From Rhodobacter capsulatus (GTDB taxonomy: Bacteria > Pseudomonadota > Alphaproteobacteria > Rhodobacterales > Rhodobacteraceae), in NCBI RefSeq assembly GCF_003254295.1, contig NZ_QKZO01000002.1, positions 62,001-126,000 on the forward strand: a stretch of DNA of 64,000 bases, read 5' to 3'. Numbering within the stretch: position 1 is the stretch's first letter; each line of letters opens with the position of its first letter. Under the pieces are notes generated by a model that was not told the DNA's origin, searched no databases, and saw nothing but the letters and a program-made list of their open reading frames with translations. The position numbers and the translations under genes were made by a program. Below, in pieces: positions 25,641 through 63,533 of the stretch.

Positions 25641-25692
25641 TTCATCTTGCCCGAAATACCTCGGGGGGCTCCGGGGGACAGCGCCCCCCGGC
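25641..25692. repeat. interspersed repeat, single arm, between ilvI and ilvH
   Basis: The arm TTTCATCTTGCCCGAAATAC continues with CTCGGGGGG and is followed by a GC hairpin CCGGGGG/CCCCCGG. It belongs to the family described at 44948 and 63423. This copy sits inside a co-transcribed gene pair, so it cannot be a full terminator on that strand. Confidence 0.75.
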
Positions 25693-25696
25693 CTTG

Positions 25697-27442
25697 TCAC
25701 ACCAGCGCCGCGCCGCCCGCAAAGGCCGCCGCATCGGCCGAGAGCAGCATTTCGTTATGCGGCTTGCCGGACGGGATCATCGGGAAGCAGTTCTCGTGCT
25801 TCTCGACCAGACAATCAAAAAGCACCGGACCATCGTAGTCGATCATCTCCATGATCGCATCGTCCAGCTCCTTCGGATCGCGGCAGATGATCCCCTTCCA
25901 GCCGAAGCTTTCCGCCAGCTTCACGAAATCGGGCAGGCTTTCCGACCAGCTTTGCGAATAGCGCCCGCCATGCAGCAGATCCTGCCACTGCCGCACCATG
26001 CCCAGCCGCTCGTTGTTCAGGATGAACTGCTTCACCGGGGTGCGGAACTGCGTCGCCGTGCCCATTTCCTGCATGTTCATCAGCCAGCTGGCCTCGCCCG
26101 CGATGTTGATGACGAGCGCGTCCGGATGCGCGATCTGCACCCCGATCGAGGCCGGGAAACCATAGCCCATCGTCCCCAAACCGCCCGAGGTCATCCAGCG
26201 ATTGGGCGCCTCGAAGCCCAGATATTGCGCCGCCCACATCTGATGCTGGCCGACTTCGGTGGTGATGTAGCGGTTGCGCCCCCTGGTCAGGGCGTCCAGC
26301 CGCTCCAGCGCATATTGCGGTTTGATGATCGCGTCGGAGTTGGTGTAGGCAAGGCAGCGCACCTTCTTCCACTCGTCGATCCGGCCCCACCAGTTCGCCA
26401 GGCCTTCCTTGTTGACCTTGCGCCCGCGCGCTTTCCAGACCTTGAGCAGGTCTTCCAGCACATGGCCGATATCGCCGACGATCGGCAGATCGACAGTGAT
26501 GATCTTGTTGATGGACGAGGCGTCGATATCGACATGCGCCTTGGTCGAATGGGGGCTGAAATCGGCGACGCGCCCGGTGATGCGGTCATCGAACCGCGCC
26601 CCGAGGTTGATCATCAGATCGCAGCCGTGCATCGCCAGATTGGCCTCGTAAAGCCCGTGCATGCCGAGCATGCCGAGCCAGCCCTTGCCCGAGGCCGGAT
26701 AGGCGCCCAGCCCCATCAGCGTCGAGGTGATCGGGAAGCCCGTCGCATCGACCAGCTCGCGCAAGAGTTGCGACGCCCCGGGGCCTGAGTTGATCACCCC
26801 GCCGCCGGTGTAAAAGATCGGCCGTTCCGCCTTTTCGATCAGCTCGACGAGCTTGGTGATCGCCTCGATGTCGCCCTTGACCTTGGGCTGATAGTGATCG
26901 ACGCGGGCGAGCTTCGGCCCGGTGTATTGGCCGGTGGCGAATTGCACGTCCTTGGGCAGGTCGATCAAGACCGGGCCGGGCCGCCCCGAGGTGGCGACAT
27001 GGAAGGCCTGATGGATGGTTTCCGACAGTTTCGCCGGGTCCTTCACCAGCCAGTTGTGCTTGGTGCAGGGGCGGGTGATGCCGATCGTGTCGGCTTCCTG
27101 AAAACCGTCGGTGCCGATCATGAAGGTGGGCACCTGACCCGAGAAGACGACCAGCGGAATGCTGTCCATCAAGGCATCGGTCAGCCCGGTCACCGCATTC
27201 GTCGCCCCCGGGCCCGAGGTCACCAGCACCACGCCCGGCTTGCCGGTCGAGCGGGCATAGCCCTCGGCCATGTGCACCGCGGCCTGTTCATGCCGCACCA
27301 GGATGTGGCGGATGTCGTTTTGCTGAAAGATCGCGTCATAGATCGGAAGCACGGCGCCGCCCGGGTATCCGAAGATCGTGTCGACCCCCTGATCCTTCAG
27401 CGCCTGCACCACCATTTCCGCGCCGGTCATCTGCCGCGACAT
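25697..27442 (-). CDS. ilvI: acetolactate synthase large (catalytic) subunit
   Basis: A 581-residue thiamine-diphosphate and FAD enzyme that condenses pyruvate to acetolactate (or with 2-oxobutyrate) in valine, leucine and isoleucine synthesis. FGYPGGAVLPIYD and the catalytic glutamate E52 in RHEQAA are clear. The usual metal/ThDP motif GDG appears as GEA in NIAGEASWLMNMQEM; I recall this variant from other alphaproteobacteria. The start at 27442 follows a purine-rich site. A 30-residue upstream in-frame extension overlaps the attenuator and was rejected. Expression is controlled by the leader described at 27489-27647. Confidence 0.94.
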   Translation of the reverse strand: MSRQMTGAEMVVQALKDQGVDTIFGYPGGAVLPIYDAIFQQNDIRHILVRHEQAAVHMAEGYARSTGKPGVVLVTSGPGATNAVTGLTDALMDSIPLVVFSGQVPTFMIGTDGFQEADTIGITRPCTKHNWLVKDPAKLSETIHQAFHVATSGRPGPVLIDLPKDVQFATGQYTGPKLARVDHYQPKVKGDIEAITKLVELIEKAERPIFYTGGGVINSGPGASQLLRELVDATGFPITSTLMGLGAYPASGKGWLGMLGMHGLYEANLAMHGCDLMINLGARFDDRITGRVADFSPHSTKAHVDIDASSINKIITVDLPIVGDIGHVLEDLLKVWKARGRKVNKEGLANWWGRIDEWKKVRCLAYTNSDAIIKPQYALERLDALTRGRNRYITTEVGQHQMWAAQYLGFEAPNRWMTSGGLGTMGYGFPASIGVQIAHPDALVINIAGEASWLMNMQEMGTATQFRTPVKQFILNNERLGMVRQWQDLLHGGRYSQSWSESLPDFVKLAESFGWKGIICRDPKELDDAIMEMIDYDGPVLFDCLVEKHENCFPMIPSGKPHNEMLLSADAAAFAGGAALV

Positions 27443-27488
27443 CTTTTCCGTCCTTTCCGGGGGCATCCCACCCCGCCCGTTTCTCAAC

Positions 27489-27516
27489 AAAAAGCCCCCG
27501 CTGGTCTGGCGAGGGC
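27489..27516 (-). terminator. attenuator terminator in the ilvIH leader
   Basis: On the minus strand, GCCCTCGC (27516-27509) pairs with GCGGGGGC (27501-27494), with one G-U pair and a 7-base loop, followed by five T (27493-27489). It lies between the leader peptide and ilvI and so would stop transcription before the structural genes. Confidence 0.85.
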
Positions 27517-27778: not shown

Positions 27779-27787
27779 CGCAAGGGC

Positions 27788-27897
27788 GTATTTGGACCAA
27801 GAAGAAACCCCGTGCCGAGTCGGTTCAGGTGCCGTTTCGCGTGCCGGTTGCAAAGGCCGGGGGCGGCGCCTTTTCGCTTTTCTTCATTTGGTCAAAT
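27788..27897. repeat. degenerate member of the interspersed repeat family
   Basis: GTATTTGGACCAAGAAGAAA (27788-27807) is roughly inverted as CTTTTCTTCATTTGGTCAAAT-like sequence at 27877-27897. The left arm resembles the element at 60608 (ATATTTGGACCAAGGTGAAA). The arms are imperfect and the GC palindromes are weak, so membership is tentative. Confidence 0.4.
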
Positions 27898-30453: not shown

Positions 30454-30473
30454 GGCGGATGGAAAGAAAAAAG

Positions 30474-34311: not shown

Positions 34312-34338
34312 CTTCATCTTGCCACAAATATCCCGGGG
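34312..34338. repeat. interspersed repeat, single arm
   Basis: CTTCATCTTGCCACAAATAT followed by CCCGGGG: one right-hand arm of the bipartite family, just after the kinase-like gene. The facing arm is missing. Confidence 0.7.
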
Positions 34339-34352
34339 TGAGACGGGATCGA

Positions 34353-44941: not shown

Positions 44942-44947
44942 CAGAGC

Positions 44948-45070
44948 GGGGGCGCCGCCCCCGCACCCCCGAGGTATTTATCGCAAGATGAAAAGCAAAG
45001 AGGGCTCCGCGAAGGGCGCCCTTTCATCTTGCCGCAAATACCTCGGGGGTGCAGGGGGCGGCGCCCCCTG
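44948..45070. repeat. bipartite interspersed repeat between lpd and the rhodanese gene
   Basis: Order: GC palindrome (44948-44963), left arm (44966-44994), spacer, right arm (45022-45049), GC palindrome CAGGGGGCGGCGCCCCCTG (45052-45070). The arms are inverted copies (CTCGGGGG end outward, TTTCATCTTGC end inward) with mismatches in the centre. It lies between convergent genes and the whole unit can fold as one long hairpin. Confidence 0.85.
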
Positions 45071-45074
45071 CCGT

Positions 45075-45616: not shown

Positions 45617-45627
45617 GCAATTTCTCG

Positions 45628-45656: not shown

Positions 45657-45681
45657 TGGGGCCTGACATCTGGGGGCGGGC

Positions 45682-48551
<2,870 letters not shown>

Positions 48552-48555
<4 letters not shown>

Positions 48556-49169: not shown

Positions 49170-49201
49170 TCGGGCCGGGCTGAGCGGGGGGCGCCGCAAG
49201 G

Positions 49202-49231
49202 AAAACCCGCCGCAACCGGGGCTGCGGCGGG
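49202..49231 (-). terminator. intrinsic terminator after the DUF2892 gene
   Basis: CCCGCCGCA and TGCGGCGGG form a 9-base stem; on the minus strand TTTTC follows. It may also act on the convergent methyltransferase gene. Confidence 0.8.
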
Positions 49232-49258
49232 CAAGCAGATGCGCTCAGAGCTGCGGGC

Positions 49259-49459: not shown

Positions 49460-49534
49460 CTCTTGCTCCCATGATGCCAGAAGGCCGGGTTTCCGGCCGA
49501 TGATGAAGCCTAGCATGGGGCCGCGGGCCTGTCG

Positions 49535-49547
49535 GTGATCTCGTCAC
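49535..49547. promoter_or_regulatory. candidate Crp/Fnr-type operator before the DUF2892 gene
   Basis: GTGA (49535-49538) and TCAC (49544-49547) are inverted with five bases between them, about 80 bases upstream of the DUF2892 start and overlapping the regulator's stop codon. The spacing differs from classical CRP sites (8), so recognition by the adjacent regulator is only a suggestion. Confidence 0.35.
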
Positions 49548-50200: not shown

Positions 50201-50253
50201 GCGTCTTATCTAATCACCCCCCCGCCCCGTGCAAGCGCCCCGGGGTGAGGCGC

Positions 50254-51126: not shown

Positions 51127-51156
51127 GTTTTCTCCCAAGGATTTGTGACGCGATCT

Positions 51157-52197: not shown

Positions 52198-53342
52198 CGG
52201 TCGCGCTCCGCCATCAGGCTGCGGGTGATGATCAACCGCATGATTTCATTGGTGCCTTCGAGGATCTGATGGACGCGCAGATCACGCACCAGCTTTTCGA
52301 TGCCGTAATCGGCCAGATAGCCGTAGCCGCCATGCAGCTGCAGGCATTGGTTGGCGACGTCAAAGGCCGCGTCGGTGACGTAGAGTTTCGCCATGGCACA
52401 GAATTTCGTCGCGTCCGGGGTGGCGTGATCGAGCTTCCAGGCCGCCTGCCGCAGGAAGATCCGCGCCGATTGCAGCTTGACCTCCTGCTCCGCCAGCCGG
52501 AATTGCAGCGCCTGAAACTGGTCAAGCGACTGGCCAAAGGCCTTGCGCTCGCCCATGTAGCGCAAAGTCGCGTCAAACGCCGCCTGCGCCCCCCCCAAAG
52601 CCGAGGCCGCGATATTGAGCCGCCCGCCATCGAGCCCCGCCATCGCATAGGCAAAACCCTTGCCCTCGACCCCCACAAGGTTCTCGGCCGGGATCATGCA
52701 ATCGTCGAAATTCACCTGCGCGGTGGGTTGCGCCCGCCAGCCCATCTTGTCCTCAAGCCCGCCAAAGGACAGCCCCTTTGTCCCCGCCGCGACCACCACG
52801 GTCGAGATGCCCTTCGGGCCGTCCCCCCCGGTGCGCACCATGGTCACATAGGCATCCGAATAGCCGCCGCCCGAGATGAAGGCCTTGGTGCCATTGAGCT
52901 TGTAACCGCCCGGCACGGGTTCGGCCCGGGTGCGCAAGGCGGCGGCGTCCGAGCCCGAGCCGGGTTCGGTCAGGCAATAGGAAAAGATCGTCTCCATGCT
53001 GCACAGCTTCGGCAGGAGCCGGGCCTTCATCTCCGGGCTGCCGAATTTGTCGATCATGCCGCCGCACATGTTGTGGATCGACAGGAACGAGCCCACCGCC
53101 GGGCAGGCCATCGCCAAGGCCTCGAAGACCAGCGTCGCATCGAGCCGGCTCAGTCCCGAGCCGCCGTAATCCTCGGAAACATAGAGGCCGCCCAGCCCCA
53201 GCGCCGCCACCTTGGGCCACAGATCGCGCGGGATCGTGCCCGCCGCCTCCCAGGCGCGGGCCTGCGGGGCGATCTGCTCCTGCCCGAAGGCGAAGGCCAT
53301 GTCAAAGATGGCCTGTTGCTCCTCGCTCAACGCGAAATCCAT
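52194..53342 (-). CDS. acyl-CoA dehydrogenase, probably isobutyryl-CoA dehydrogenase
   Basis: A 382-residue flavoprotein. FAD-binding motifs CLTEPGSGSDAAAL and KAFISGGG are clear, and the catalytic glutamate is in ILEGTNEIMR at the C-terminus. The substrate isobutyryl-CoA is inferred from the operon (valine pathway). The start at 53342 is chosen because MDFALSEEQ is the standard opening; a 22-residue extension was rejected. A repeat element separates it from mmsA, 217 bases upstream. Confidence 0.92.
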   Translation of the reverse strand: MDFALSEEQQAIFDMAFAFGQEQIAPQARAWEAAGTIPRDLWPKVAALGLGGLYVSEDYGGSGLSRLDATLVFEALAMACPAVGSFLSIHNMCGGMIDKFGSPEMKARLLPKLCSMETIFSYCLTEPGSGSDAAALRTRAEPVPGGYKLNGTKAFISGGGYSDAYVTMVRTGGDGPKGISTVVVAAGTKGLSFGGLEDKMGWRAQPTAQVNFDDCMIPAENLVGVEGKGFAYAMAGLDGGRLNIAASALGGAQAAFDATLRYMGERKAFGQSLDQFQALQFRLAEQEVKLQSARIFLRQAAWKLDHATPDATKFCAMAKLYVTDAAFDVANQCLQLHGGYGYLADYGIEKLVRDLRVHQILEGTNEIMRLIITRSLMAERDR

Positions 53343-53417
53343 GCGCCCCTCCCAAACCGCGTGAATTGAACATCTGTTTAATTTCGAATCCTTGCACGAA
53401 TTTTGCAAGGGAAGGGG

Positions 53418-53512
53418 GAGGGGCGCTGCCCCTCTTGGCCTGCGGCCAATTCACCCCGAGGTATTTCGGGCAAGATGAAGCCATGGGCTTTTTCTTGGCG
53501 CAAATACGCCTC
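53418..53512. repeat. bipartite interspersed repeat between mmsA and the acyl-CoA dehydrogenase gene
   Basis: Hairpin GAGGGGC/GCCCCTC (53418-53434), hairpin TTGGCC/GGCCAA (53435-53449), left arm (53454-53479), nine-base spacer, right arm (about 53489-53510). The left arm is of the CATCTTG type and the right arm of the CTTGGCG type, so the copy is a hybrid. It lies inside an operon. Confidence 0.75.
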
Positions 53513-53559
53513 TGGCCCGAAGGGCAAGCCGCGCCTTTGGCGCGGCCCCCGTGTCCGGG

Positions 53560-55059
53560 TCAGTCGAGCGCCTTGAAGTTCAAGGCGACGCCGTCCTTGA
53601 TCCCCGAGAACCAGCGCGCGGTGACCGTTTTCGTCTTCGTGTAGAAGCGGAAGGCGTCGGGGCCGTATTGGTTCAGATCGCCGAAGGCCGATTTCTTCCA
53701 GCCGCCGAAGGTGTAGTAGGACAGCGGCACCGGGATCGGGAAGTTGATGCCGACCATGCCGACATTGACGCGGCTGGCGAAATCGCGCGCGGTGTCGCCG
53801 TCGGCGGTGAAGATCGCCGTGCCGTTGCCGTAGTCATTGTCGATCACCAGCTTCAGCGCGTCCTCGTAGGTCTCGGCGCGCACGACGCTCAGCACCGGGC
53901 CGAAGATCTCCTGCTTGTAGATCTCCATCTCGGGCGTCACCGCGTCAAAGAGGGTCGGGCCGACGTAATAGCCGTTTTCATAGCCCTGGATCTTCAGCCC
54001 GCGCCCGTCGACGACCAGCTTCGCGCCCTGCTCGACGCCCGAGGTGATCAGCCCCTCGATCCGGTCTTTCGCCTGCTGCGTGATCACCGGCCCGAAATCG
54101 ACATCGGCGCCGCCCGTGTAGGGACCGACCTTCAGCTTCTCGATCTTCGGGATCAGCCGCGAGATCAGCGCCTCGGCCGTGCCCTTGCCCACCGGCACCG
54201 CGACCGAGATCGCCATGCAGCGTTCCCCGGCCGCGCCGTAGCCCGCGCCCACCAGCGCATCGGCGGCCTTGTCCATGTCGGCATCGGGCATGATCAGCAT
54301 GTGGTTTTTCGCGCCGCCAAAGCACTGCGCGCGTTTGCCATTCGCACAGGCGCGGCCATAGATATATTGCGCGATCGGCGTCGAGCCGACAAAGCCCACC
54401 GCCTGCACGGTGTCGTTGTCAAGGATCGCATCGACCGCTTCCTTGTCGCCGTTCACCACCTGCAGCACGCCATCGGGCAGGCCCGCTTCCTTGGCCAGTT
54501 CCGCCAGACGCAGCGCGGTCGAGGGGCAGCGTTCCGAGGGTTTCAGGATCATCGCATTGCCCGCCGACAGCGCCGGGCCCATCTTCCACAGCGGGATCAT
54601 GGCGGGGAAGTTGAACGGCGTGATCCCCGCGACGACGCCAAGCGGCTGGCGCATCGCATAGATGTCGATGCCCGGTCCCGCGCCATCGGTATATTCGCCC
54701 TTCAGCAGTGCCGGGGCGCCCATGCAGACCTCGATCACCTCAAGGCCGCGTTGCACGTCGCCACGGCCATCGGCCAGCACCTTGCCATGCTCGACCGAGA
54801 CAAGCTCCGCCAGCTCGTCCATATGCGTGTTGATCAGATCGGCGAATTTCATCATCACCCGGGCGCGGCGCTGCGGGTTCGTCGCGGCCCAGCCCGGCTG
54901 GGCGCGTTCGGCGGCGGCGACGGCGGCGTCAAGCTCGGCCTTGCTCGCCAGCGCCACGCGCGCGCGCACTTCGCCCGTGGCCGGGTTCATCACCTCGGCG
55001 AACCGGCCCGAGCTGCCCGCGACCATCTTGCCGTCGATCCAGTGTCCGATCTCTTTCAT
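53560..55059 (-). CDS. mmsA: methylmalonate-semialdehyde dehydrogenase (CoA-acylating)
   Basis: A 499-residue aldehyde dehydrogenase converting methylmalonate semialdehyde to propionyl-CoA, the last step of valine degradation. The catalytic cysteine is in AGERCMAISVAVPVG, and ITPFNFPAMIPLWKMGPAL and GGAKNHMLIMPDADMDKA are typical. The start MKEIGHWIDG at 55059 has GGAGGATAG upstream; the frame stays open upstream through the divergent regulator, which is an artefact of GC-rich DNA. First gene of the operon. Confidence 0.95.
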   Translation of the reverse strand: MKEIGHWIDGKMVAGSSGRFAEVMNPATGEVRARVALASKAELDAAVAAAERAQPGWAATNPQRRARVMMKFADLINTHMDELAELVSVEHGKVLADGRGDVQRGLEVIEVCMGAPALLKGEYTDGAGPGIDIYAMRQPLGVVAGITPFNFPAMIPLWKMGPALSAGNAMILKPSERCPSTALRLAELAKEAGLPDGVLQVVNGDKEAVDAILDNDTVQAVGFVGSTPIAQYIYGRACANGKRAQCFGGAKNHMLIMPDADMDKAADALVGAGYGAAGERCMAISVAVPVGKGTAEALISRLIPKIEKLKVGPYTGGADVDFGPVITQQAKDRIEGLITSGVEQGAKLVVDGRGLKIQGYENGYYVGPTLFDAVTPEMEIYKQEIFGPVLSVVRAETYEDALKLVIDNDYGNGTAIFTADGDTARDFASRVNVGMVGINFPIPVPLSYYTFGGWKKSAFGDLNQYGPDAFRFYTKTKTVTARWFSGIKDGVALNFKALD

Positions 55060-55085
55060 TCTATCCTCCCTGACAGGTTTGCGCC

Positions 55086-55114
55086 ATATTACCCTTGCGA
55101 AAATGCCGCCAAAA
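55086..55114 (-). promoter_or_regulatory. mmsA operon promoter
   Basis: Minus-strand TTTTGG (55114-55109) and TAATAT (55091-55086) are spaced by 17 bases. The -35 is weak, as expected for an activator-dependent promoter. The palindromic operator at 55126-55151 would lie around -47 to -72. Confidence 0.6.
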
Positions 55115-55125
55115 GAGGAAGTCAG

Positions 55126-55151
55126 GCAAAAGCGTTTTGCATAATTGCAAA
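55126..55151. promoter_or_regulatory. overlapping palindromes, probable LysR operator
   Basis: GCAAAAGCGTTTTGC (55126-55140) and TTTGCATAATTGCAAA (55136-55151) are two perfect inverted repeats sharing five bases, between mmsA and the divergent LysR gene. The second fits the T-N11-A rule for LysR regulators. The position relative to the mmsA promoter suits activation, and the overlap with the regulator's own start region suits autorepression. Confidence 0.75.
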
Positions 55152-55161
55152 GGGTGCGGCG

Positions 55162-56091
55162 ATGGACTGGGATGATCTGCGGGTGTTTCTGGCGGTGGCG
55201 CGGGCGGAAAGCCTGTCGGGCGCGGGCCGGGGGCTGAAATGCGATGCGGCGACGGTGGGGCGGCGCGTGGCGCGGCTCGAGGAAGCGGTGGGCGCGAAGC
55301 TGTTTGCGAAATCGCCGCAGGGCTATGCGCTGACCGCCGAGGGGGCGCGGCTGATGCCGCATGCGGAAGCCGCCGAGGCGGCCTTTGCCGCCGCGACCGA
55401 GGAGCTTTCGGGCGCGGCGGGCCAGATCACCGGCCAGCTGCGCATCGGCGCGCCGGATGGCTGCGCAAATTACCTGCTGCCGCAGGTCTGCGCCGAGATC
55501 TGTGACGCGCATCCGGGGCTGGAGATCCAGATCGTTGCGCTGCCGCGGGTCTTCAACCTCTCGAAACGCGAGGCGGATATGGCGATTGCGGTGTCCCCGC
55601 CCTCGGCCGGGCGGCTGACGGTGCAGAAACTTGTCGACTATCAGCTGCATCTGGCCGGGCACGAGGCCTATCTGCGCCGCCATCCGCCGATCCTGGAACG
55701 CGCGCAGCTGAAGGGGCACCGGATCGTCGGCTATATTCCCGACATGATCTTCGACAAGGAACTGGATTATCTGGCGCAGACCGGGGCTTCGACGGTGGAA
55801 CTGGCGTCGAATTCGGTCTCGGTGCAGATGCAGATGCTGCGGGCGGGGGCGGGCCTCGGCATCGTGCATGATTTCGCGCTGCCCTTCACGCCCGGTGTCG
55901 TGCGCGTTCTGCCCGATCAGATCGCGCTTTCCCGTGCGTTCTGGCTGATCCGGCATGCCGATGACCGCCGCTCGGAACGGCTCGACCGGCTGGCCGAGGC
56001 CTTGGGGCGGGGCATGCGGCGCGAGGTGGCGCGGCTTGAGGCGCTGGCCGCGGCGGGGGCGGGCCTGGGCTCGCCGACGCGGGCGCTGTGA
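55162..56091 (+). CDS. LysR family transcriptional regulator of the valine operon
   Basis: A 309-residue LysR regulator. The N-terminal helix-turn-helix covers about residues 2-60 (DWDDLRVFLAVARAESLSGA and following), and a substrate-binding domain follows from about residue 92. It is divergent from mmsA with 102 bases between the two starts. The operator in that gap makes control of the mmsA operon very likely. The effector is probably a valine-pathway intermediate, but that is inference. Confidence 0.9.
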   Translation: MDWDDLRVFLAVARAESLSGAGRGLKCDAATVGRRVARLEEAVGAKLFAKSPQGYALTAEGARLMPHAEAAEAAFAAATEELSGAAGQITGQLRIGAPDGCANYLLPQVCAEICDAHPGLEIQIVALPRVFNLSKREADMAIAVSPPSAGRLTVQKLVDYQLHLAGHEAYLRRHPPILERAQLKGHRIVGYIPDMIFDKELDYLAQTGASTVELASNSVSVQMQMLRAGAGLGIVHDFALPFTPGVVRVLPDQIALSRAFWLIRHADDRRSERLDRLAEALGRGMRREVARLEALAAAGAGLGSPTRAL

Positions 56092-56182
56092 CGCTGCGGC
56101 GCGGCAGGGGGTGCTTGCAAATTCCGCGCCGATGCTGTTGCGTGCGCTCACCTTTCGGTGACTGCGGTCTGAGGAGGACTGG

Positions 56183-56689
56183 ATGCGGATCGGCCTTTAC
56201 CCCGGAACCTTCGACCCGGTGACGCTTGGGCATATCGACATCATCGAGCGCGCTTTGGCGCTGGTGGACCGTCTGGTGATCGGGGTGGCGATCAACCGCG
56301 ACAAGGGGCCGCTGTTTTCGCTCGAGGAGCGGGTGGGGATGCTGCAGGCCGAATGCGCGCCGATCACCGCGCGGCGCGGCGGCGAGATCGTCGTGCATCC
56401 GTTCGAAAACCTGCTGATCGATTGCGCCCGCGATGTCGGCGCGGGCGTGATCGTGCGCGGGCTGCGGGCGGTGGCGGATTTCGAATATGAATTCCAGATG
56501 GTGGGCATGAACCGGGCGCTGGATGCGAGTGTCGAGACCGTGTTCCTGATGGCCGATGCGCGGCGACAGGCGATCGCCTCGAAGCTGGTGAAGGAAATCG
56601 CCCGGCTGGGCGGCGACGTGTCGAAATTCGTGACGCCCGCGGTGGCCGAGCGCCTGAGCGCGCGGCTGAGCCGCCAGGCCGCGCCGTGA
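56183..56689 (+). CDS. coaD: phosphopantetheine adenylyltransferase
   Basis: A 168-residue enzyme of coenzyme A synthesis that makes dephospho-CoA from 4'-phosphopantetheine and ATP. The nucleotidyltransferase motif GTFDPVTLGHIDII is at the start, VRGLRAVADFEYEFQM in the middle. GAGGAG precedes the ATG. A solitary gene, convergent with purF across a 202-base repeat. Confidence 0.95.
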   Translation: MRIGLYPGTFDPVTLGHIDIIERALALVDRLVIGVAINRDKGPLFSLEERVGMLQAECAPITARRGGEIVVHPFENLLIDCARDVGAGVIVRGLRAVADFEYEFQMVGMNRALDASVETVFLMADARRQAIASKLVKEIARLGGDVSKFVTPAVAERLSARLSRQAAP

Positions 56690-56741
56690 CGGTGCAGATG
56701 ACCGGCCATCGCCAGCCCGCGGATTTCGGCTGAGGGAAGAG

Positions 56742-56943
56742 TTTCGCCTCGGGCTTCGCCCGAGGCGACCCGCCGGGGGCTCCGCCCCCGGGCCCCCGGG
56801 ATATTTGAAGCAAGGCGAAAGAGGACGGGCAAGCGCTTTCCGTCCGGCGTCGTGATGAAAATGGCCTTGTTTTTCCTTGGCAAAATACGCCGGGGGGGGG
56901 GCGGCGCCCCCCGCGGGTCGCCTCGGGCCTGCCCGAGGCGAAA
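56742..56943. repeat. long inverted-repeat element between coaD and purF
   Basis: The outermost bases TTTCGCCTCGGGC (56742-56754) and GCCCGAGGCGAAA (56931-56943) are perfect inverted copies. Inside them GCCCGAGGCGACCCG (56758-56772) and CGGGTCGCCTCGGGC (56914-56928) match perfectly as well. Inside these are GC palindromes and the two family arms (56793-56821, 56869-56895). Each terminus can also fold locally into a 10-base stem. The whole is about 202 bases and resembles a MITE or a giant bidirectional terminator. Confidence 0.8.
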
Positions 56944-56950
56944 GACCTTC

Positions 56951-58417
56951 TCAGCCCTTCATCTTGAAGCCCTTGCCGATCTGATCGGCGGGCTTCACCG
57001 GATAATCGCCCGAGAAACAGGCGTCGCAATATTGCGGGCAGGCAGTGTCGCGCCCGGCCTCGGCCCCCGCGGCGCGGTAAAGCCCGTCGAGCGAGATGAA
57101 TTCAAGGCTGTTCACCCCGATCCACTCGCGCATCTCCTCGACCGACATCCGCGCCGCCAGAAGCTTGTTCCGGTCGGGCGTGTCGACGCCGTAAAAGCAC
57201 GGCCAGGCGGTGGGCGGGCTGGCGATCCGGAAATGCACCTCGGCCGCGCCGGCTTCCAGGATCATCTCCTTGATCTTGCGGCTTGTCGTGCCCCGCACCA
57301 CCGAATCGTCGACCAGCACCACGCGCTTGCCCTTGATCAGGCAGCGGTTCACGTTCAGCTTCAGCCGCACGCCCATGTTGCGGATATGCTCGGTCGGCTC
57401 GATGAAGGTGCGGCCCATGTATTGGTTGCGGGTGATGCCAAGCGCGAAGGGGATCCCCGATTCCTGGCTGTAGCCGATCGCGGCAGGCGTGCCGCTGTCG
57501 GGCACCGGGCAGACCAGATCGGCCTCGACCGGGGCCTCGCGCGCCAGCTCCACCCCGATCTGACGGCGCGTCTCATAGACCGAGCGGCCGCCGATGATGC
57601 TGTCGGGCCGCGAGAAATAGACATGCTCGAAGATGCAGAACCGCGGTTGCGCGGCGTGGAAGGGCCGGGTGCTTTCGATCTGGCCTTCGTGGATGATCAC
57701 CATCTCGCCGGGTTCGATCTCGCGCACCAGTTCCGCCCCGATGATGTCGAGCGCGCAGGTCTCGGACGAGAGCACATAGCCGTTCTCGCCGAGCCGCCCC
57801 AGCACCAGCGGCCGCACGCCCAGCGGGTCGCGCACGCCAATGAGCTTCGTGCGCGTCATCGCGATGACGGAAAACGCCCCCTCGACCCGGCGCAGCGCAT
57901 CGGCGATGCGCTCGGCATGGTTGGTCTGGATCGAGCGCGCCATCAGATGGATGATGCATTCGCTGTCCGACCCCGACTGGAAGATTGCGCCGCGGTCGAT
58001 CAGCTCGCGGCGCAGCGCATCGGCATTCGTCAGGTTGCCGTTATGCGCGATCGCGCAGCCGCCCATCGAAAACTCACCGAAGAAGGGCTGGATGTCGCGG
58101 ATCACCGCCGCCTTCGATCCCGCCGTCGAATAGCGCACATGGCCGATGGCCAAGGGCCCCGGCAGCGTTTCCATCAGCGAGGCCTTGGTGAAATTGTCGC
58201 GCACATAGCCGAAGCGATGCGCCGAATTGAAGCCCTTGGCCGGATCATGGGCGACGATGCCGCCCGCTTCCTGGCCACGGTGCTGCAGCGCATGCAGGCC
58301 GAGCGCCACGAAATTCGCCGCGTCGACGACGCCGATCACGCCGAAAACGCCGCATTCCTCCTTCAGCTTGTCGTCGTCAAACGGATGCGACAGGAAGGTC
58401 TTTTCGGCAACGGTCAT
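56951..58417 (-). CDS. purF: amidophosphoribosyltransferase
   Basis: A 488-residue enzyme for the first committed step of purine synthesis (PRPP plus glutamine to phosphoribosylamine). The catalytic cysteine is C22 in EECGVFG, so a 21-residue propeptide must be removed, as in the Bacillus type. Cysteines in PRFCIFEH, WPCFYG and CPQYCDACF fit the [4Fe-4S] ligands of that type. The PRPP motif VLVDDSVVRGTTS is present. It is last in the series radA-cvpA-purF, although the gap to cvpA is 116 bases with a terminator-like hairpin. Confidence 0.95.
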   Translation of the reverse strand: MTVAEKTFLSHPFDDDKLKEECGVFGVIGVVDAANFVALGLHALQHRGQEAGGIVAHDPAKGFNSAHRFGYVRDNFTKASLMETLPGPLAIGHVRYSTAGSKAAVIRDIQPFFGEFSMGGCAIAHNGNLTNADALRRELIDRGAIFQSGSDSECIIHLMARSIQTNHAERIADALRRVEGAFSVIAMTRTKLIGVRDPLGVRPLVLGRLGENGYVLSSETCALDIIGAELVREIEPGEMVIIHEGQIESTRPFHAAQPRFCIFEHVYFSRPDSIIGGRSVYETRRQIGVELAREAPVEADLVCPVPDSGTPAAIGYSQESGIPFALGITRNQYMGRTFIEPTEHIRNMGVRLKLNVNRCLIKGKRVVLVDDSVVRGTTSRKIKEMILEAGAAEVHFRIASPPTAWPCFYGVDTPDRNKLLAARMSVEEMREWIGVNSLEFISLDGLYRAAGAEAGRDTACPQYCDACFSGDYPVKPADQIGKGFKMKG

Positions 58418-58460
58418 GGGAAGGCTCCAGGGATCTTGGGCTTGGCGCGGCTTTAACGCG

Positions 58461-58487
58461 AAACGGGAGGGGTGTTAAGCCCTCCCG
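58461..58487 (-). terminator. hairpin between cvpA and purF, probable (partial) terminator
   Basis: CGGGAGGG (58464-58471) and CCCTCCCG (58480-58487) pair perfectly; on the minus strand only TTT follows. It would limit read-through from cvpA into purF. Confidence 0.65.
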
Positions 58488-58533
58488 CTCGGAATTCCTT
58501 ACAAAGCTGTCACGATTTCGCGCGGGTCATGGC

Positions 58534-59136
58534 TCAGTTCGTGGCGGGGGGCGTCACGCCGCCGGGCAGAACCGTCTCGGCGGCGGGGGTGCATTTCGCC
58601 ACCAGGGTTTCGTAGCGCGCGACGATCCAGCCCGGCGCATCATCGGGCATCGTGTCGTCCATCTGCCCGCTCAGCTTGGAAAAAACCTTGGCGGCGCGCG
58701 AATTGTCCACCACCGGCATCGCCTGGGCGGTGACCAGCTTGTCATAGACGACGAAGGCCACCGCGACGAGGATCACCCCGCGCGCGACGCCGAAGAGAAA
58801 TCCGAGGCCCTGATCGAGCCCGCCCAGCACCGAGCGTTGCACCAGCGTCGCAAAAAGCGGCGTCAGGATCGAAAACAGCACCAGCGAGAGCGCAAAGACC
58901 GCGGCGAAACCGCCGATCGTTGCCAATTCGCAGCTGTCGGCCAGAAACTTGTTCAGGACCGGCAGCTGCGCGATCAAGGGCTTGGCGGCATCGGCAAAGG
59001 TATAGGCCAGCACCGCCGCGCCGATCCAGCCCATGATGGCCAGCCCCTCGCGCACGAAGCCGCGGCTGTAGGCGAGGATCGCCGACAGGATGATGGTGAT
59101 CGCCACGATGGCGTCGACGATGGTGAACCCTTCCAT
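58534..59136 (-). CDS. cvpA: CvpA family membrane protein
   Basis: A 200-residue protein with four membrane helices in the first 140 residues (VDAIVAITIILSAILAYSRG opens the first) and a polar C-terminal tail. CvpA is needed for colicin V production and envelope stress tolerance in enterobacteria; its activity is unknown. Association with purF is common in proteobacteria. It follows radA by 21 bases. Confidence 0.92.
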   Translation of the reverse strand: MEGFTIVDAIVAITIILSAILAYSRGFVREGLAIMGWIGAAVLAYTFADAAKPLIAQLPVLNKFLADSCELATIGGFAAVFALSLVLFSILTPLFATLVQRSVLGGLDQGLGFLFGVARGVILVAVAFVVYDKLVTAQAMPVVDNSRAAKVFSKLSGQMDDTMPDDAPGWIVARYETLVAKCTPAAETVLPGGVTPPATN

Positions 59137-59157
59137 GGTTCCAAACCCCCTGTGACG

Positions 59158-60525
59158 CTAGCCTGCGCCGAACATGTCCCCAACGAATGTCACGAGGTCG
59201 GGCAGCTTGCGCAGCGCCATCCCCGCCCCGCCCTCAAGCTTGGTGCCCACCGGCAGGATCGCCTGTGAGAAACCAAGTTTCTCCGCCTCTTTCAACCTGT
59301 TTTCCGCCTGTCCCACCGGGCGCAGCGCCGCCGAAAGCGAGATTTCCCCGAAAATCACCAGATCGGCCGGAAGCGCCACATCCTCGCGCGCCGAGAGCAG
59401 CGCGGCCGCCAGGGCGAGATCGGCGGCGGGCTCCAGAACCTTCAGCCCGCCCGCGACATTGAGGAACACATCGAGCCCGGCAAAGGGAATGCCGCAGCGG
59501 CTTTCCAGCACGGCAAGGATGGTGGACACCCGCCCCGAATCGAGGCCCACCACCGTGCGGCGCGGGCTGGCCAGCGACGAGGGGGCGACGAGCGCCTGAA
59601 TTTCCGTGAGCACCGGCCGCGTGCCCTCGATGCCCGCGAAGACCGCCGAGCCGGGGGCGGGCTGGCCGCGCTCGGACAAAAACAGCGCCGAGGGGTTGGC
59701 GACCTCGGCCAAGCCGCCGCCGGTCATCTCGAAAACGCCGATTTCCGAGGCCGGGCCGAAGCGGTTCTTCACCGCGCGCAGGATGCGGAACTGATGGCCC
59801 CGCTCGCCCTCGAAATACAGCACGGTATCGACCATGTGTTCGACGACGCGGGGGCCGGCGATCTGGCCCTCCTTGGTGACATGGCCGACAAGGATCACCG
59901 AGACGCCGCGCGATTTCGCGAAAGTCACCAGCTCATGGGCGGCGGCGCGGACCTGGCTGACCGAGCCGGGCGCCGCCTCGACCATGTCGGCCCACATCGT
60001 CTGAATGGAATCGATCACCACCAGATCGGGGCGCTCGGCCTCGAGCGTGGTCAGGATGTCGCGCAGGTTGGTCTCGGCGCCAAGGCTCACGGGCGCATCG
60101 GCCAGCCCCAGCCGCAAGGCCCGCATCCGCACCTGCGCCGAGGCTTCCTCGCCCGAGATATAAAGGCATTTCAACCCCTTGCGGGCGAAAGCGGCGACCG
60201 CTTGCAAGAGCAGCGTCGATTTCCCGATCCCCGGATCGCCCCCCACCAGGATCGCCGAGGCGGGGACAAGACCGCCCCCCAGCACCCGGTCGAATTCCGC
60301 CATGCCGCACAGGGTGCGCGGCGGCGGTGCCTCTTCATGGGCGAGCGTGGTCAGATCGATGCGCCGCCCCTTCGCCCCGCCGAGGCTTTTCCCCGCCGGG
60401 CCGGTCGAGAGCGGCGCCTCCTCGACGATCGAATTCCACGCGCCGCAGGCGTCGCAACGCCCCGACCATTTGCGATGAACGGCACCACAGCCGGTGCAGG
60501 TGAAGTTTGCGGATGCCTTGGCCAT
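59158..60525 (-). CDS. radA: DNA repair protein RadA
   Basis: A 455-residue RecA-like branch-migration helicase of recombination. It has an N-terminal zinc finger (CTGCG...CDACG, residues 10-29), Walker A GGDPGIGKSTLLLQ near residue 93, the RadA-specific KNRFG motif and a C-terminal Lon-protease-like domain. All motifs are intact. It probably forms an operon with cvpA. A repeat element lies between it and mlaF upstream. Confidence 0.95.
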   Translation of the reverse strand: MAKASANFTCTGCGAVHRKWSGRCDACGAWNSIVEEAPLSTGPAGKSLGGAKGRRIDLTTLAHEEAPPPRTLCGMAEFDRVLGGGLVPASAILVGGDPGIGKSTLLLQAVAAFARKGLKCLYISGEEASAQVRMRALRLGLADAPVSLGAETNLRDILTTLEAERPDLVVIDSIQTMWADMVEAAPGSVSQVRAAAHELVTFAKSRGVSVILVGHVTKEGQIAGPRVVEHMVDTVLYFEGERGHQFRILRAVKNRFGPASEIGVFEMTGGGLAEVANPSALFLSERGQPAPGSAVFAGIEGTRPVLTEIQALVAPSSLASPRRTVVGLDSGRVSTILAVLESRCGIPFAGLDVFLNVAGGLKVLEPAADLALAAALLSAREDVALPADLVIFGEISLSAALRPVGQAENRLKEAEKLGFSQAILPVGTKLEGGAGMALRKLPDLVTFVGDMFGAG

Positions 60526-60571
60526 GCGCCCTTGTGGCAGAGCCCCGCGCAGCCTGCAAGCGGCAGGCGGG

Positions 60572-60710
60572 GAGGGGGGCGCCGCCCCCCTCGGCCTTGC
60601 GGCCTCACCCCCCGGGATATTTGGACCAAGGTGAAAGCAGATCCGGTCTTCGTTTCACCTTGGCGCAAATATCCCGGGGGGAGTCCGAAGGACGGGGGGC
60701 GGCGCCCCCC
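60572..60710. repeat. bipartite interspersed repeat between mlaF and radA
   Basis: Palindrome of 21 bases (60572-60592), a GGCC-TTGC-GGCC hairpin, left arm (60608-60637), spacer of 14, right arm (60652-60680), palindrome GGGGGGCGGCGCCCCCC (60694-60710). The arms differ from perfect complementarity at only two to three central bases. This is the best preserved CCTTGG-type copy. Confidence 0.85.
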
Positions 60711-60727
60711 CTTCGCCGCAGCCTGCC

Positions 60728-61471
60728 TCAGCGGATCGCGGCGATCGGCCCCTCGGCCCGGCCGTGGATGAACTGTGTCACATAAGGGTCTGACGTCGTG
60801 TCCATGTCCGCGATCGTGCCGTGCCAGCGGATGAGCCCGTCATGCAGCATCGCCACCCGGTCGGCGATGGCCCGGACCGAGGACATGTCATGGGTGATGG
60901 TGATCGCGGTCGCGCCCATCTCGCGCACGACGGAATTGATCAGATCGTTGATCACCCCCGACATGATCGGATCAAGGCCGGTGGTCGGCTCGTCGAAGAA
61001 GATCACCGAGGGCTCGGTGGCAATGGCGCGGGCCAGACCGACGCGCTTTTGCATGCCGCCCGACAGCTCGGCCGGGAACAGGTCGGCGACCTCGGGGCCA
61101 AGGCCGACGCGGGCAAGTTTCTCGATCGCGACCGCGCGGGCCTCGGCCTTCGGGCGCTTTTGCGGGCCGCGCAGCAGCCGGAAGGCGACGTTTTGCCAGA
61201 CGCTCAGGCTGTCGAACAGCGCCGCGCCCTGAAACAGCATGCCGAAACGCGACAGGAAGTCCTCGCGCCCCTGCGCGACCGGGGCGCCGTTGACCCGGAT
61301 CAGGCCCGCGTCAGGCGTCACGAGACCGAGGATGCATTTCAAAAGCACCGATTTCCCGGTGCCCGAACCGCCGATGACGACAAGGCTTTCGCCGCGCTCG
61401 ATACGCAAGGACACACCGCGCAGCACCTGTTTCGACCCGAAGGACTTCGTGAGGCTTTCGATCTCGATCAT
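60728..61471 (-). CDS. mlaF: ABC transporter ATP-binding protein, MlaF type
   Basis: A 247-residue ATPase of the phospholipid-trafficking (Mla) ABC system that maintains outer-membrane lipid asymmetry. Walker A GGSGTGKSVLLK, signature LSGGMQKRV and Walker B VIFFDEPTTGLDP are intact. The SGGMQKRVGLARA wording is typical of MlaF. It overlaps mlaE by ATGA. The partner genes mlaD and mlaC are not in this window. Confidence 0.92.
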   Translation of the reverse strand: MIEIESLTKSFGSKQVLRGVSLRIERGESLVVIGGSGTGKSVLLKCILGLVTPDAGLIRVNGAPVAQGREDFLSRFGMLFQGAALFDSLSVWQNVAFRLLRGPQKRPKAEARAVAIEKLARVGLGPEVADLFPAELSGGMQKRVGLARAIATEPSVIFFDEPTTGLDPIMSGVINDLINSVVREMGATAITITHDMSSVRAIADRVAMLHDGLIRWHGTIADMDTTSDPYVTQFIHGRAEGPIAAIR

Positions 61472-62247
61472 TTGGAGAAGAACACCTCGGTCAGCAGGTA
61501 ATTGGAGGCAAGGATCGCGACCGAGGCCGCGACAACGGCGGATTTCGTCGCCCGGCCCACGCCCTGCGCGCCGCGGCCCGAATTCATCCCGTAATAGCAG
61601 CCCATCAGCGCGACCAGAAAGCCGAAGGCCGCGCCCTTGACCAGCCCCGAGCCGACATCCCAAAGTTCCAGATATTCCCAGGTGTTGCGGATATAGGTGG
61701 CCGAGTTGAAGCCGAGCCGCTCCGTCCCGATCAGCCAGCCGCCCATGACACCGATGACATCGCCCACGGCCACAAGCAGCGGCACCGAGAGCGTCGCCGC
61801 CAGAACCCGCGGCACGGCCAGATATTTCAGCGGATTGGTCGACAGCGTCACGAGCGCGTCGATCTGTTCGGTCACTTTCATCGTGCCGATCTCGGCGGCG
61901 ATCGAACTGGCCACGCGCGCGGCGACCATCAGCCCGCCGAGCACCGGGCCAAGCTCGCGCACCATCCCGATCGCGACGATCGAGGGCACGACGCTTTCGG
62001 CCGAAAACCGCGCCCCCCCCGCGTAGATCTGCAGTGCCAGCGCCGCCCCGGTAAAAAGCGCGGTCATGCCGACGACCGGCAGCGACAGCCAGCCGATCTG
62101 CAAGAGCGCCTGCAGCAATTCGCGGCCGTAAAACGGCGGGCGCAGCATGTGGCTGAGCACCGCGCCGGTGAACAGGCCGACCCGGCCCGCGCCCGCAAGC
62201 GCCGCAAGTACGGTGCGGCCAAGCGCGGCCAGAGCGGTCAGGATCAC
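61468..62247 (-). CDS. mlaE: ABC transporter permease, MlaE type
   Basis: A 259-residue inner-membrane permease with about five helices. The central [26 protein letters not shown] region (about 95-120) with its [14 protein letters not shown] continuation is the family signature. It forms the membrane core for MlaF. It overlaps alr upstream and mlaF downstream by ATGA, so the three genes are translationally coupled. Confidence 0.92.
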
Positions 62248-63293
62248 GCCAGCCCCCCGACATAGGCGCGCTGATAGCGTTGTCCCAGCGCGGTCAGAAT
62301 CTCATAGCCGATCGTGCCCGCGACCTCGGCCAGGGCATCGACGCCCTGATGCGGCCCAAGGATATCAAGGCTTTGCGGCACCTCGGCCAGATCGGTGACA
62401 TCAACGGTGATCAGATCCATCGAGACGCGGCCCACCAGCGGGCAGGGGGTGTCGCCCGCCCAGAGCCTCGCCTTGCCCGAAAACCGGCGCGAAAGCCCGT
62501 CGGCATAGCCCGCGGCGACGGTGGCGATGCGGCTTTCGCGCGGCGCGGTCCAGCTGTTGGCATAGCCCACGGTCTCGCCCGGCGCGACCTTGCGGATCTG
62601 CACCACCGGCAGCGAAAGCCGCACCACCGGGCGGGCTTTCTCGAACGGCAGCCCGCCATACAGACCGATGCCGGGCCGGGTGACGTCGAAATGATAGTCG
62701 GGACCAAGCAGGATGCCCCCCGTCGCCGAGAGCGCGCGTTTCAGCCCCGTCCCGTCGGTCATGGCGCGGAAATTTTTCAGCTGAGCCGCGTTCATCGGAT
62801 GCTCTGGCTCGTCCGAACAGGCCAGATGGCTCATCACCAGCTTCGGCCCGGCAGCGATCAGCTCGGCCGAAACCGCGGCCCAATCGGCGGGCTCAAGGCC
62901 AAGCCGGTTCATTCCCGTATCCAGCTGCACGCCGAAAGCCGCGCCGGGCAGGGCGTCGCGATGACGCTTCACCTGCTCGACCGAGTTCAGCATCGGCGTC
63001 AGGCCCAGATCCCCGATCATCTCGGTATCGCCCGCCATATGGCCGGAAAAGACGAAGATTTCGGGGCCCTCGCCAAGGGCCTGGCGGACGGTTGCGCCTT
63101 CCTCGGCGGCGGCGACAAAGAACTTGCGCGCCCCCGCCTGCGCCAGAACCCGCGCCACCCGCGCGGCGCCAAGGCCGTAGCTGTCGGCCTTGACCACCGC
63201 CCCGGTCTCGGTGGCGGCGGAAGTCATTGCGTCAAGCGCCCGCCAATTGGCAAGCACGGCGTCAAGATCGATGCGGAGCGATGCTGTGGTCAT
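62244..63293 (-). CDS. alr: alanine racemase
   Basis: A 349-residue PLP enzyme that makes D-alanine for peptidoglycan. The PLP lysine is in [11 protein letters not shown] (usual form VKANAYGHG), and RPGIGLYGG and [11 protein letters not shown] are conserved. It lies 247 bases downstream of dnaB, a common alphaproteobacterial order. Coupled to mlaE. Confidence 0.93.
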
Positions 63294-63422
63294 GCGGTTT
63301 TCTTGAGCCTGAGGGGCAGAAGGTCAAGCGCAAACATCCGTGAGCGCGCGCGCCCGCAACAGATGTGGCAGGGGGGGGCTCGTTCAGGGGGCTTACGCGG
63401 CGCCACGGTCCCCCTTCACCCC

Positions 63423-63533
63423 GTCCGCAAGCGGACTCCCCCCGAGGTATTTCGGGCAAGATGAAAACACTCTGGATTGGCTTTCATCTTGCCGCAAATA
63501 CCTCGCGGGGGTCCGGGGGCGCGAAGCCCCCGG
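63423..63533. repeat. bipartite interspersed repeat between dnaB and alr
   Basis: Hairpin GTCCGC/GCGGAC (63423-63436), left arm (63438-63466), 15-base spacer, right arm (63482-63511), hairpin CCGGGGGC/GCCCCCGG (63513-63533). The arms are near-perfect inverted copies of the CATCTTG type. It starts 7 bases after the dnaB stop on the minus strand. Confidence 0.85.

What the first reader, a model, noticed from the sequence alone, without database searches (positions are those of the whole stretch)
25641..63533. A family of bipartite inverted repeats 3' of genes
At 25641, 34312, 44948, 53418, 56742, 60572 and 63423 the same module recurs: a GC palindrome, a 26-30 base arm, a spacer of about 9-47 bases, the inverted arm, and a second GC palindrome. 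Two copies have only one arm. All lie directly after a gene (convergent, tandem or inside an operon), and none is found in the first 25 kb, which holds the nuo operon. The RNA of either strand can fold into one long stem. I do not recognise a named family. Possible roles: 3' mRNA stabilisation, bidirectional termination, nucleoid-protein binding, or a mobilised non-autonomous repeat.
Basis: partly seen in the sequence, partly recalled or inferred. Interest (0 to 1): 0.7.

Follow-up and report, generated by a model that had tools for sequence, protein, structure and literature searches.

The report
Gene-end repeats with changing sequence dialects
This bacterium and many of its relatives carry numerous copies of a short DNA module just after genes, built of one or two mirror-image copies of a conserved word next to small hairpins, and the word changes from genus to genus as if it followed an unknown reader protein.

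Summary
All seven modules are in the window, plus one unlisted lone arm (27780-27807). The own genome has 274 exact cores YCTTGSNNNAAATAY, reversed control 1. In 864 kb of two species 97 of 99 arms lie clear of called genes; occupied gaps are convergent 18/45, tandem 39/253, divergent 3/91.

The conserved unit is the arm, not the stem: frame TTC-X7-NNN-AAATAY. X7 is a dialect, nearly fixed within a motif-rich genome and different between genera. NNN is nearly free and not kept complementary between paired arms. Between two species NNN differs at 32% of sites, conserved positions at 6.5%. Outer GC hairpins flank 61 of 62 arms; short hairpins covary. The frame is over-represented only inside the family.

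Best reading: a gene-end element joining structured RNA hairpins to a site for an unidentified sequence-specific DNA-binding factor, acting as a transcription boundary. Anatomy is shown; factor and role are inferred. Closest kinds: REP/BIME repeats (no Y1_Tnp gene here) and uptake-sequence dialects (but no coding excess). No named family turned up in the literature searches, mostly seen as listings.

The parts
25640..25667 (+). lone arm, dialect ATCTTGC, 29 nt after the ilvB stop (between ilvB and ilvN, both - strand); a GC hairpin follows on its GGGGG side
27780..27807 (-). lone arm not in the finding, dialect TTCTTGG, in a 684-nt gap between divergent called genes
34312..34339 (+). lone arm, dialect ATCTTGC, 8 nt after the stop of the gene ending at 34303, convergent gap
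44946..44964 (.). left GC hairpin of the module after the dihydrolipoyl dehydrogenase gene
44966..44993 (-). left arm
45022..45049 (+). right arm, spacer 28 nt
45051..45071 (.). right GC hairpin
53453..53480 (-). left arm, dialect ATCTTGC
53488..53515 (+). right arm, dialect TTCTTGG (mixed pair), spacer 7 nt
56793..56820 (-). left arm, between coaD and purF (convergent)
56869..56896 (+). right arm, imperfect (two free bases instead of three), spacer 48 nt; the pair is nested inside outer hairpins TTTCGCCTCGGGC..GCCCGAGGCGA
60572..60592 (.). left GC hairpin of the module between an ABC transporter gene (best named match mlaF-like, below its cut-off) and radA
60593..60604 (.). left short hairpin GGCC-TTGC-GGCC
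60609..60636 (-). left arm, dialect ACCTTGG
60653..60680 (+). right arm, dialect ACCTTGG, spacer 16 nt
60683..60693 (.). right short hairpin GTCC-GAA-GGAC
60694..60711 (.). right GC hairpin
63439..63466 (-). left arm, dialect ATCTTGC, module between a dnaB-type helicase gene and alr
63482..63509 (+). right arm, spacer 15 nt

Best explanation
It is a family of gene-end boundary elements shared by many Rhodobacteraceae. Each element is one arm, or two arms with their TTC ends facing each other, flanked on the outer (GGGG) side by a GC hairpin, often with a short hairpin in between. Shown here: the arm [CT]TTC-X7-NNN-AAATAY.. is kept by selection on its sequence whether or not it has a partner; X7 is a genome-specific dialect; the short hairpins are kept by base pairing; elements sit just past stop codons and are rare in divergent (promoter) gaps. 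Inferred: the arm is a double-stranded DNA site for one or a few unidentified DNA-binding factors whose specificity has drifted between genera. Polymerase leaving a gene makes the GC and short hairpins and meets the bound arm; the two together stop or slow read-through, from both sides where the arm is doubled, and leave a structured, exonuclease-resistant 3' end. Where a lone arm lies inside an apparent operon (ilvB|ilvN) the boundary would be partial.
For: Position: in 864 kb, occupied gaps are convergent 18/45, tandem 39/253, divergent 3/91; 36 of 42 tandem elements are nearer the upstream stop, median 37 nt against 134.5 to the next start (orthologous C3 and G010 stretches both count). Sequence selection: in 24 orthologous arms CTTG has 0 of 96 changes, NNN 0.32, the 23 other conserved positions 0.065; the two semi-variable positions -6 and 4 (6 and 5 changes in 24) were left out of both classes. 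Not stem selection: in 18 short pairs NNN is complementary at 0.43 against 0.37 re-paired at random (367 of 2000 reached), X7 at 0.98 against 0.81 (0 of 2000). Both orientations to the upstream gene occur. Fixed gap: 56 exact cores with three free bases, 4 with two, 2 with one, 0 with none, four, five or six. Dialects: for example 22 of 26 listed matches of G162 carry ATTGTTC. Hairpins: GC hairpin in 61 of 62 halves against a mean of 6.2 in shuffled copies and 14 of 99 element-free gene ends; 16 distinct short hairpins pair with themselves at 0.98 against 0.60 with other copies, 0 of 5000 shuffles.
Against: No factor was identified and no transcript ends were seen. Orientation is not neutral everywhere: lone arms in tandem gaps lean to TATTT-in-sense in Rhodobacter (C3 plus window 8:3, G010 7:2) and all six conserved lone arms in tandem gaps have that orientation, while tandem arms across the family lean the other way (14:23, paired arms included); a purely orientation-free DNA site would predict no lean. 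U-tracts are rare: TTT within 8 nt of the GC hairpin in 9 of 61. Canonical hairpin+T patterns are no commoner in reads of convergent gaps with an element (6/36) than without (13/54), and the consensus scan marks none of the five elements in 44500-64000 as a terminator except one hit inside a spacer. Lone arms occur inside apparent operons: ilvB|ilvN here, bchH|bchL and bchN|bchB in Roseinatronobacter. Hundreds of sites changing dialect together is hard to explain by a host factor alone. Orthologous elements switch subtype as a block, which looks like copying as much as selection.
Confidence: 0.4

Rival explanations
1. REP/BIME-like extragenic repeats: copies spread by an unknown copying mechanism and persist mainly as repeats, with mRNA protection or protein binding secondary.
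For: Hundreds of copies, extragenic, at gene ends, single or inverted pairs, mosaic modules, discrete subtypes. Presence/absence between species: two of 20 mappable elements are truly absent in G010, and the mla|radA element is missing in G010 and G009. Orthologous elements change subtype as a block. The coaD|purF element sits inside what is a bare hairpin in G010 (by eye).
Against: No Y1_Tnp (PF01797) match in the own genome, while 5 of 14 control genomes ring. The arm is not itself a palindrome. The absences look like deletions leaving GC scars or ending at short repeats (by eye). Arms are conserved at orthologous sites while NNN diverges, so copies are old and constrained.
Confidence: 0.25
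2. DNA uptake-type signal: the arm is favoured by a DNA import receptor (competence or gene transfer agent uptake), with dialects tracking the receptor, as for DUS in Neisseriaceae.
For: Genus dialects, more than one per genome, inverted pairs at gene ends, both orientations. DUS dialects and terminator-like inverted pairs are described in PMC3630211 (passages seen).
Against: Uptake signals lie largely in coding DNA (47-70% in five Pasteurellaceae, passage of PMC2346458). Here exact cores in 662 kb of coding DNA are 2, both in G010: one in a gene call whose end overlaps an element, one in a 375-nt called gene. 1-mismatch cores are 5, within the 0-9 of eight control patterns. The GTA marker PF13547 is in 13 of 13 motif-rich and 11 of 13 motif-poor genomes. 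A word this long may be barred from coding DNA for other reasons, so the test is not final.
Confidence: 0.1
3. RNA-level stem: paired arms form one long stem at mRNA 3' ends for stability or RNase III processing.
For: Three of four pairs folded give z -7 to -12 on both strands. Arms of short-spacer pairs share X7 in 26 of 29. The dnaB|alr element shows mostly matching changes in both arms between four species.
Against: 17 of 38 elements in C3 plus window have one scored arm, although at least three of them (C3 30209, 171494, 316895) show a weaker partner by eye. Lone arms are conserved across species. NNN is not kept complementary. The pair at 53453 folds weakly.
Confidence: 0.12
4. Chromosome organisation sites: the arms bind a nucleoid or topology protein, and gene ends are simply where such sites are tolerated.
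For: Both orientations, sites on many contigs and on extrachromosomal Paracoccus replicons. REP precedent for gyrase and IHF is recalled, from no call.
Against: The closeness to stop codons in tandem gaps and the GC hairpins are not explained. No periodicity or chromosome-arm test was made.
Confidence: 0.13

Closest known systems
REP / BIME repeats of enterobacteria (recalled; RepRanger survey PMC12306157, a passage and one section seen)
   Same: Extragenic, hundreds of copies, single or inverted pairs, discrete subtypes, at gene ends, mosaic with other short motifs
   Different: The arm is not a palindrome; fixed frame with a nearly free NNN gap; genus dialects across a family; no Y1_Tnp match in the own genome. 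The RepRanger text has no mention of Rhodobacter, Paracoccus, Cereibacter or Roseobacter
DNA uptake sequences and their dialects (PMC3630211, passages seen)
   Same: Genus dialects, sometimes two dialects in a genome, inverted pairs near gene ends
   Different: Longer and more specific word; no excess of near-matches in coding DNA; no uptake role known; no link to the GTA marker
Caulobacter and other alphaproteobacterial intergenic repeats (CIR, RIME, Bru-RS; recalled, nothing seen)
   Same: Alphaproteobacterial, intergenic, inverted-repeat layout
   Different: As recalled they are longer and of lower copy number; no GANTC site is fixed here, it occurs only in some short hairpins (by eye)
Bidirectional intrinsic terminators
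   Same: GC hairpins at gene ends, serving both strands
   Different: U-tract mostly missing; a conserved sequence word of about 20-28 bases next to the hairpin

Membership tests
REP/BIME | extragenic and multi-copy | tested here: met
   274 exact cores genome-wide; of 99 arms in 864 kb, 1 inside and 1 partly inside one gene call of G010, whose C3 orthologue lies outside
REP/BIME | each unit is itself an imperfect palindrome | tested here: not met
   Two lone-arm stretches fold no better or only weakly better than shuffles, z -0.23 to -2.78; no internal dyad by eye
REP/BIME | associated RAYT (Y1_Tnp) gene | tested here: not met
   0 matches to PF01797 in G000; relatives were not searched
DNA uptake sequence | over-represented across the genome, coding DNA included | tested here: not met
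DNA uptake sequence | dialects differ between genera | tested here: met
   5 of the 9 genomes whose strings one search lists, and Paracoccus replicons
DNA uptake sequence | promotes DNA uptake | not testable with these tools
   needs an uptake assay
Intrinsic terminator | GC hairpin followed by a U-tract | tested here: not met
   hairpin in 61 of 62 halves but TTT within 8 nt in 9 of 61; canonical pattern in 6 of 36 reads of element-bearing convergent gaps
MITE / IS-derived repeat | target-site duplication and clean empty sites | tested here: inconclusive
   two true absences in G010, with a GC scar or a short-repeat junction by eye; duplications were not scored by script
Rfam RNA family | match at the gathering score | tested here: not met
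   0 matches in the window; only sub-threshold miRNA-hairpin matches at two elements

The most novel reading that the evidence does not exclude
Many Rhodobacteraceae mark the ends of genes with a DNA word read by an undiscovered, fast-evolving sequence-specific protein (or small set of paralogues). Specificity lies in a 7-base slot inside a constant frame TTC-X7-NNN-AAATAY, the protein and hundreds of sites change dialect together, and with the flanking hairpins it forms a protein-assisted transcription boundary.
Probability: 0.3. Interest if true: 0.85.

Novelty: new variant of a known kind. Interest (0 to 1): 0.62.

Why it matters
If the reading is right, a large and well-studied bacterial family has a gene-end recognition system that did not surface in my literature searches. 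It would bear on how genes end in GC-rich genomes where U-tract terminators are few, and it poses a clean coevolution problem: how hundreds of sites change their word together. The arm word gives a direct bait for finding the factor. It also affects terminator prediction and plasmid design in Rhodobacter, Paracoccus and roseobacters.

Tried and rejected
Intrinsic-terminator-only model: I first read arms as hairpin + UAUUU in sense direction. Rhodobacter lone arms lean that way (8:3 and 7:2), but tandem arms across the family lean the other way (14:23) and U-tracts are rare, so I dropped it as a full account. RAYT-driven REP: no PF01797 match in the own genome. Uptake-sequence drive: no excess of near-matches in coding DNA. 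GTA link: the marker is as common in motif-poor as in motif-rich genomes. A roseobacter-type right half (AAATAYNCCGCCGGAGGC, up to 1 mismatch) was searched in 26 genomes and found in only 4, one match each. The IHF consensus was compared from memory and does not fit (half-sites in the opposite order). Rfam gave nothing usable. PMC1852404, on terminators and uptake signals, does not mention the five Rhodobacteraceae genus names searched; a Term-seq survey, PMC12207403, has none of five taxon names. A second short-hairpin pattern in the script matched nothing because the expression was badly written; no result is claimed from it. The exact-sequence paper search returned 126 papers for six short strings; only 15 were listed, none relevant by title, the other 111 were not seen. 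Paracoccus plasmid stretches had no gene annotation in the collection, so my own gene caller was used there.

Limits: genes in C3, G010 and most loci were called by a simple codon-usage script; stops are more reliable than starts. C3 and G010 stretches are largely orthologous, so pooled counts are not independent. One search lists strings of only 9 of 150 genomes and at most 26 per genome. Five of the nine (17-81 matches) show dialects; four (G127, G144, G150, G158; 4-22 matches) show none and look like chance matches, so a count of matches alone does not prove the family in a genome. Positional information covers four of the five. The 62 halves were chosen at 25 bits or more, which favours the ATCTTGC and ACCTTGG subtypes.
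Full report
What was checked. The seven places were read directly. Every one holds the module as described; spacers of the five pairs are 28, 7, 48, 16 and 15 nt. One more lone arm lies at 27780-27807. The core TCTTGN4AAATA with at most one mismatch occurs 14 times in the window against 0.56 expected in shuffles; 12 of the 14 are arms.

Genome-wide. The window is G000:C2:62001-126000 in a 3.67-Mb genome. CTTGNNNNAAATANNCCGGGG with at most one mismatch occurs 174 times, reversed control 0. YCTTGSNNNAAATAY occurs 274 times exactly, reversed control 1. The genome is a Rhodobacter or very near it: RadA is 99% identical to that of R. viridis JA737 in a named record. An unnamed same-genus genome with RadA at 100% (rounded) has a contig of 3,738,958 bases, which I recall as the length of the R. 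capsulatus SB1003 chromosome.

Position. I took 400 kb of contig C3 without regard to matches and called genes with a simple script. C3 plus window hold 38 elements: 12 convergent, 24 tandem, 2 divergent, none inside a gene. With a syntenic 400 kb of G010 added, occupancy of gaps of 80 nt or more is convergent 18/45, tandem 39/253, divergent 3/91. Of 42 tandem elements 36 are nearer the upstream stop (median 37 nt against 134.5 nt to the next start). Of 99 arms one is inside and one partly inside a single called gene of G010; the orthologous arms in C3 lie outside, so I take that gene call as over-extended. On replicon stretches of Paracoccus and Roseinatronobacter, 12 of 12 frame matches are intergenic, reversed control 0; only the Roseinatronobacter stretch (2 of the 12) has curated genes.

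Anatomy. The Rhodobacter arm is TTTCAYCTTG-SY-NN-AAATAYCYCGGGGG. Among 62 halves scoring 25 bits or more, ACCTTGG goes with AAATATCCC (23), ATCTTGC with AAATACCTC (15) or AAATATCCC (12); the TTCTTGG-type with AAATACGCC-like boxes is rarer at that threshold (about 6). Three free bases between CTTGS and AAATA is the rule: 56 exact matches in C3 and window, 4 with two, 2 with one, none with zero, four, five or six. In C3, window and G010 every scored pair has its TTC ends inward; spacers cluster at 6-12 and 15-17 nt. Elsewhere in the family the opposite facing occurs at least once (L066 135/214). On the GGGG side a GC hairpin follows in 61 of 62 halves, against a mean of 6.2 (maximum 10) in 50 mononucleotide shuffles of the same 90-mers and 14 of 99 element-free gene ends. 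Many have a short hairpin in between: sixteen distinct short hairpins of one type pair with themselves at 0.98 of their outer four positions against 0.60 with other copies; 0 of 5000 shuffles reach this.

What selection keeps. Twenty of 30 C3 elements have a mappable orthologous gap in G010; ten do not. Seventeen are scored in both and three only in C3; one of the three is visibly present below the threshold, so two are truly absent. In 24 orthologous arms (15 elements; 2 of the 17 were skipped because arm counts differed) CTTG never changed (0 of 96), NNN changed at 0.32 and 23 other positions at 0.065; two semi-variable positions (-6 and 4: 6 and 5 changes in 24) were left out of both classes. 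One row (C3 274280) is inflated by a one-base shift. Eight of the 24 are lone arms. Within 18 short-spacer pairs of C3 and window, NNN is complementary at 0.43 against 0.37 for random re-pairing (367 of 2000 reached), X7 at 0.98 against 0.81 (0 of 2000) and the box after AAATA at 0.86 against 0.60 (0 of 2000). So the arm word is conserved, the free bases are not kept paired, and the two arms of a close pair carry the same dialect (26 of 29 with spacer up to 30 nt, 2 of 6 beyond). Against a simple account, orthologous elements can switch subtype as a block, both arms together at C3:186336 and in a lone arm at C3:274280, which suggests copying between elements or a sharp preference with no tolerated intermediates.

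Orientation. Both orientations to the upstream gene occur, but not evenly. Lone arms in tandem gaps run hairpin-TATTT in sense 8 times and TTC-to-AAATA in sense 3 times in C3 plus window, 7 and 2 in G010; all six lone arms in tandem gaps that are compared across the two species run hairpin-TATTT in sense. Across the family, tandem arms (paired ones included) count 14 and 23. A double-stranded DNA site explains both orientations; the lean, different by lineage, it does not explain.

Across the family. In 80 named RadA neighbourhoods of Rhodobacteraceae, TTCN10AAATAY has 57 matches against 2 reversed. YTTCN10AAATAYNC in 150 genomes of the family gives 6,659 matches against 296 reversed; 145 have at least one, 89 have 20 or more, and 86 have 20 or more and at least five times their control; five have none. 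In 94 genomes of other families of the class it gives 737 against 466, and none reaches 20 with five times its control. X7 is a dialect in five of the nine genomes whose strings are listed: of 26 listed strings ATTGTTC 22 in G162, TTTGGGT 15 in G126, TTCGTTG 14 in G027, TTATTGG 12 in G099, and GCGTTGG 6 of 17 in G187 (by eye). The other four listed genomes (4-22 matches) show no common X7. Paracoccus replicons carry TTCGTTC (7 of 10) and TCTGTTC (3 of 10). Motif-poor genomes may use a frame I did not search.

Turnover. The mla|radA element is present in the window genome and G014, reduced to a scar in G010 and absent in G009, all with RadA 99-100% identical in protein. The dnaB|alr element is shared by all four, with mostly matching changes in both arms; G010 has one arm of each box type. 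At coaD|purF the window's element lies within a hairpin that stands alone in G010. A DNA search of phage records found nothing; of plasmid records it found 11, mostly Paracoccus, with two short chance-like Bordetella matches.

How it may work. Shown: gene-end position, selection on a sequence word independent of pairing, dialects, and structured flanking hairpins. Inferred: the word is a DNA site for an unidentified factor, and hairpins plus bound factor make a boundary. The weakest points are the missing U-tracts, no enrichment of canonical terminators in convergent gaps (6/36 against 13/54; in tandem gaps 6/39 against 20/214), no element flagged by the consensus scan apart from one spacer hit, the uneven orientation, and lone arms inside apparent operons. 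I considered REP/BIME repeats, uptake signals, RNA stems and nucleoid sites as rivals. The uptake reading was tested: 1-mismatch cores in 662 kb of coding DNA number 5, within the 0-9 of eight control patterns, whereas 132 kb of intergenic DNA has 89 exact cores (controls 0) and 17 with one mismatch (controls 0-16). The GTA marker does not track the motif.

Known or new. No paper in the listings returned is about such a repeat in this family by title or the abstract start shown; most subscription papers are not in the library, and most listed papers were not opened. Passages were seen of PMC3630211, PMC2346458, PMC6238624 and PMC12306157 (one whole section of the last); PMC1852404 and PMC12207403 were searched for taxon names without a hit. 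I rate it a new variant of a known kind (interspersed gene-end repeats), with the constant-frame, variable-slot dialects as the unusual part.

Noticed in passing
window 56742-56950; C3 30209, 163716, 185036, 198038; L009, L016: Some elements have a further outer hairpin module (TTTCGCC..GGCGA joined through CCCGG) that in G010 exists alone at coaD|purF
   Followed up: partly
contig C3 about 49-130 kb (L033-L037): About 80 kb without any scored arm between element-rich stretches; nature of the stretch not examined
   Followed up: no
spacers of TTCTTGG-type pairs in C3 and G010, and window 53481-53487: Several spacers of 6-9 nt contain CATG (for example cacatg, cccatgg, ccatgcc)
   Followed up: no
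short hairpins next to arms, e.g. window 60681-60693 and C3 18518: GTCC..GGACTC hairpins place a GANTC (CcrM-type) site beside the arm in some but not all elements
   Followed up: no
C3:163716 against its G010 orthologue: G010 has a different, longer hairpin at the junction of arm and GC hairpin, as if hairpin modules are exchanged there
   Followed up: partly
62 halves in G000: X7 and the box after AAATA are coupled: ACCTTGG was seen only with ATCCC-like boxes (25 of 25), TTCTTGG-type never with them; few intermediates
   Followed up: partly
family genomes G021, G063, G077, G093, G117: No match to the frame at all although relatives are rich in it; loss, or another frame
   Followed up: partly
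window 27780-27807: Lone arm in a 684-nt gap between divergent called genes; a small uncalled gene may end there
   Followed up: no
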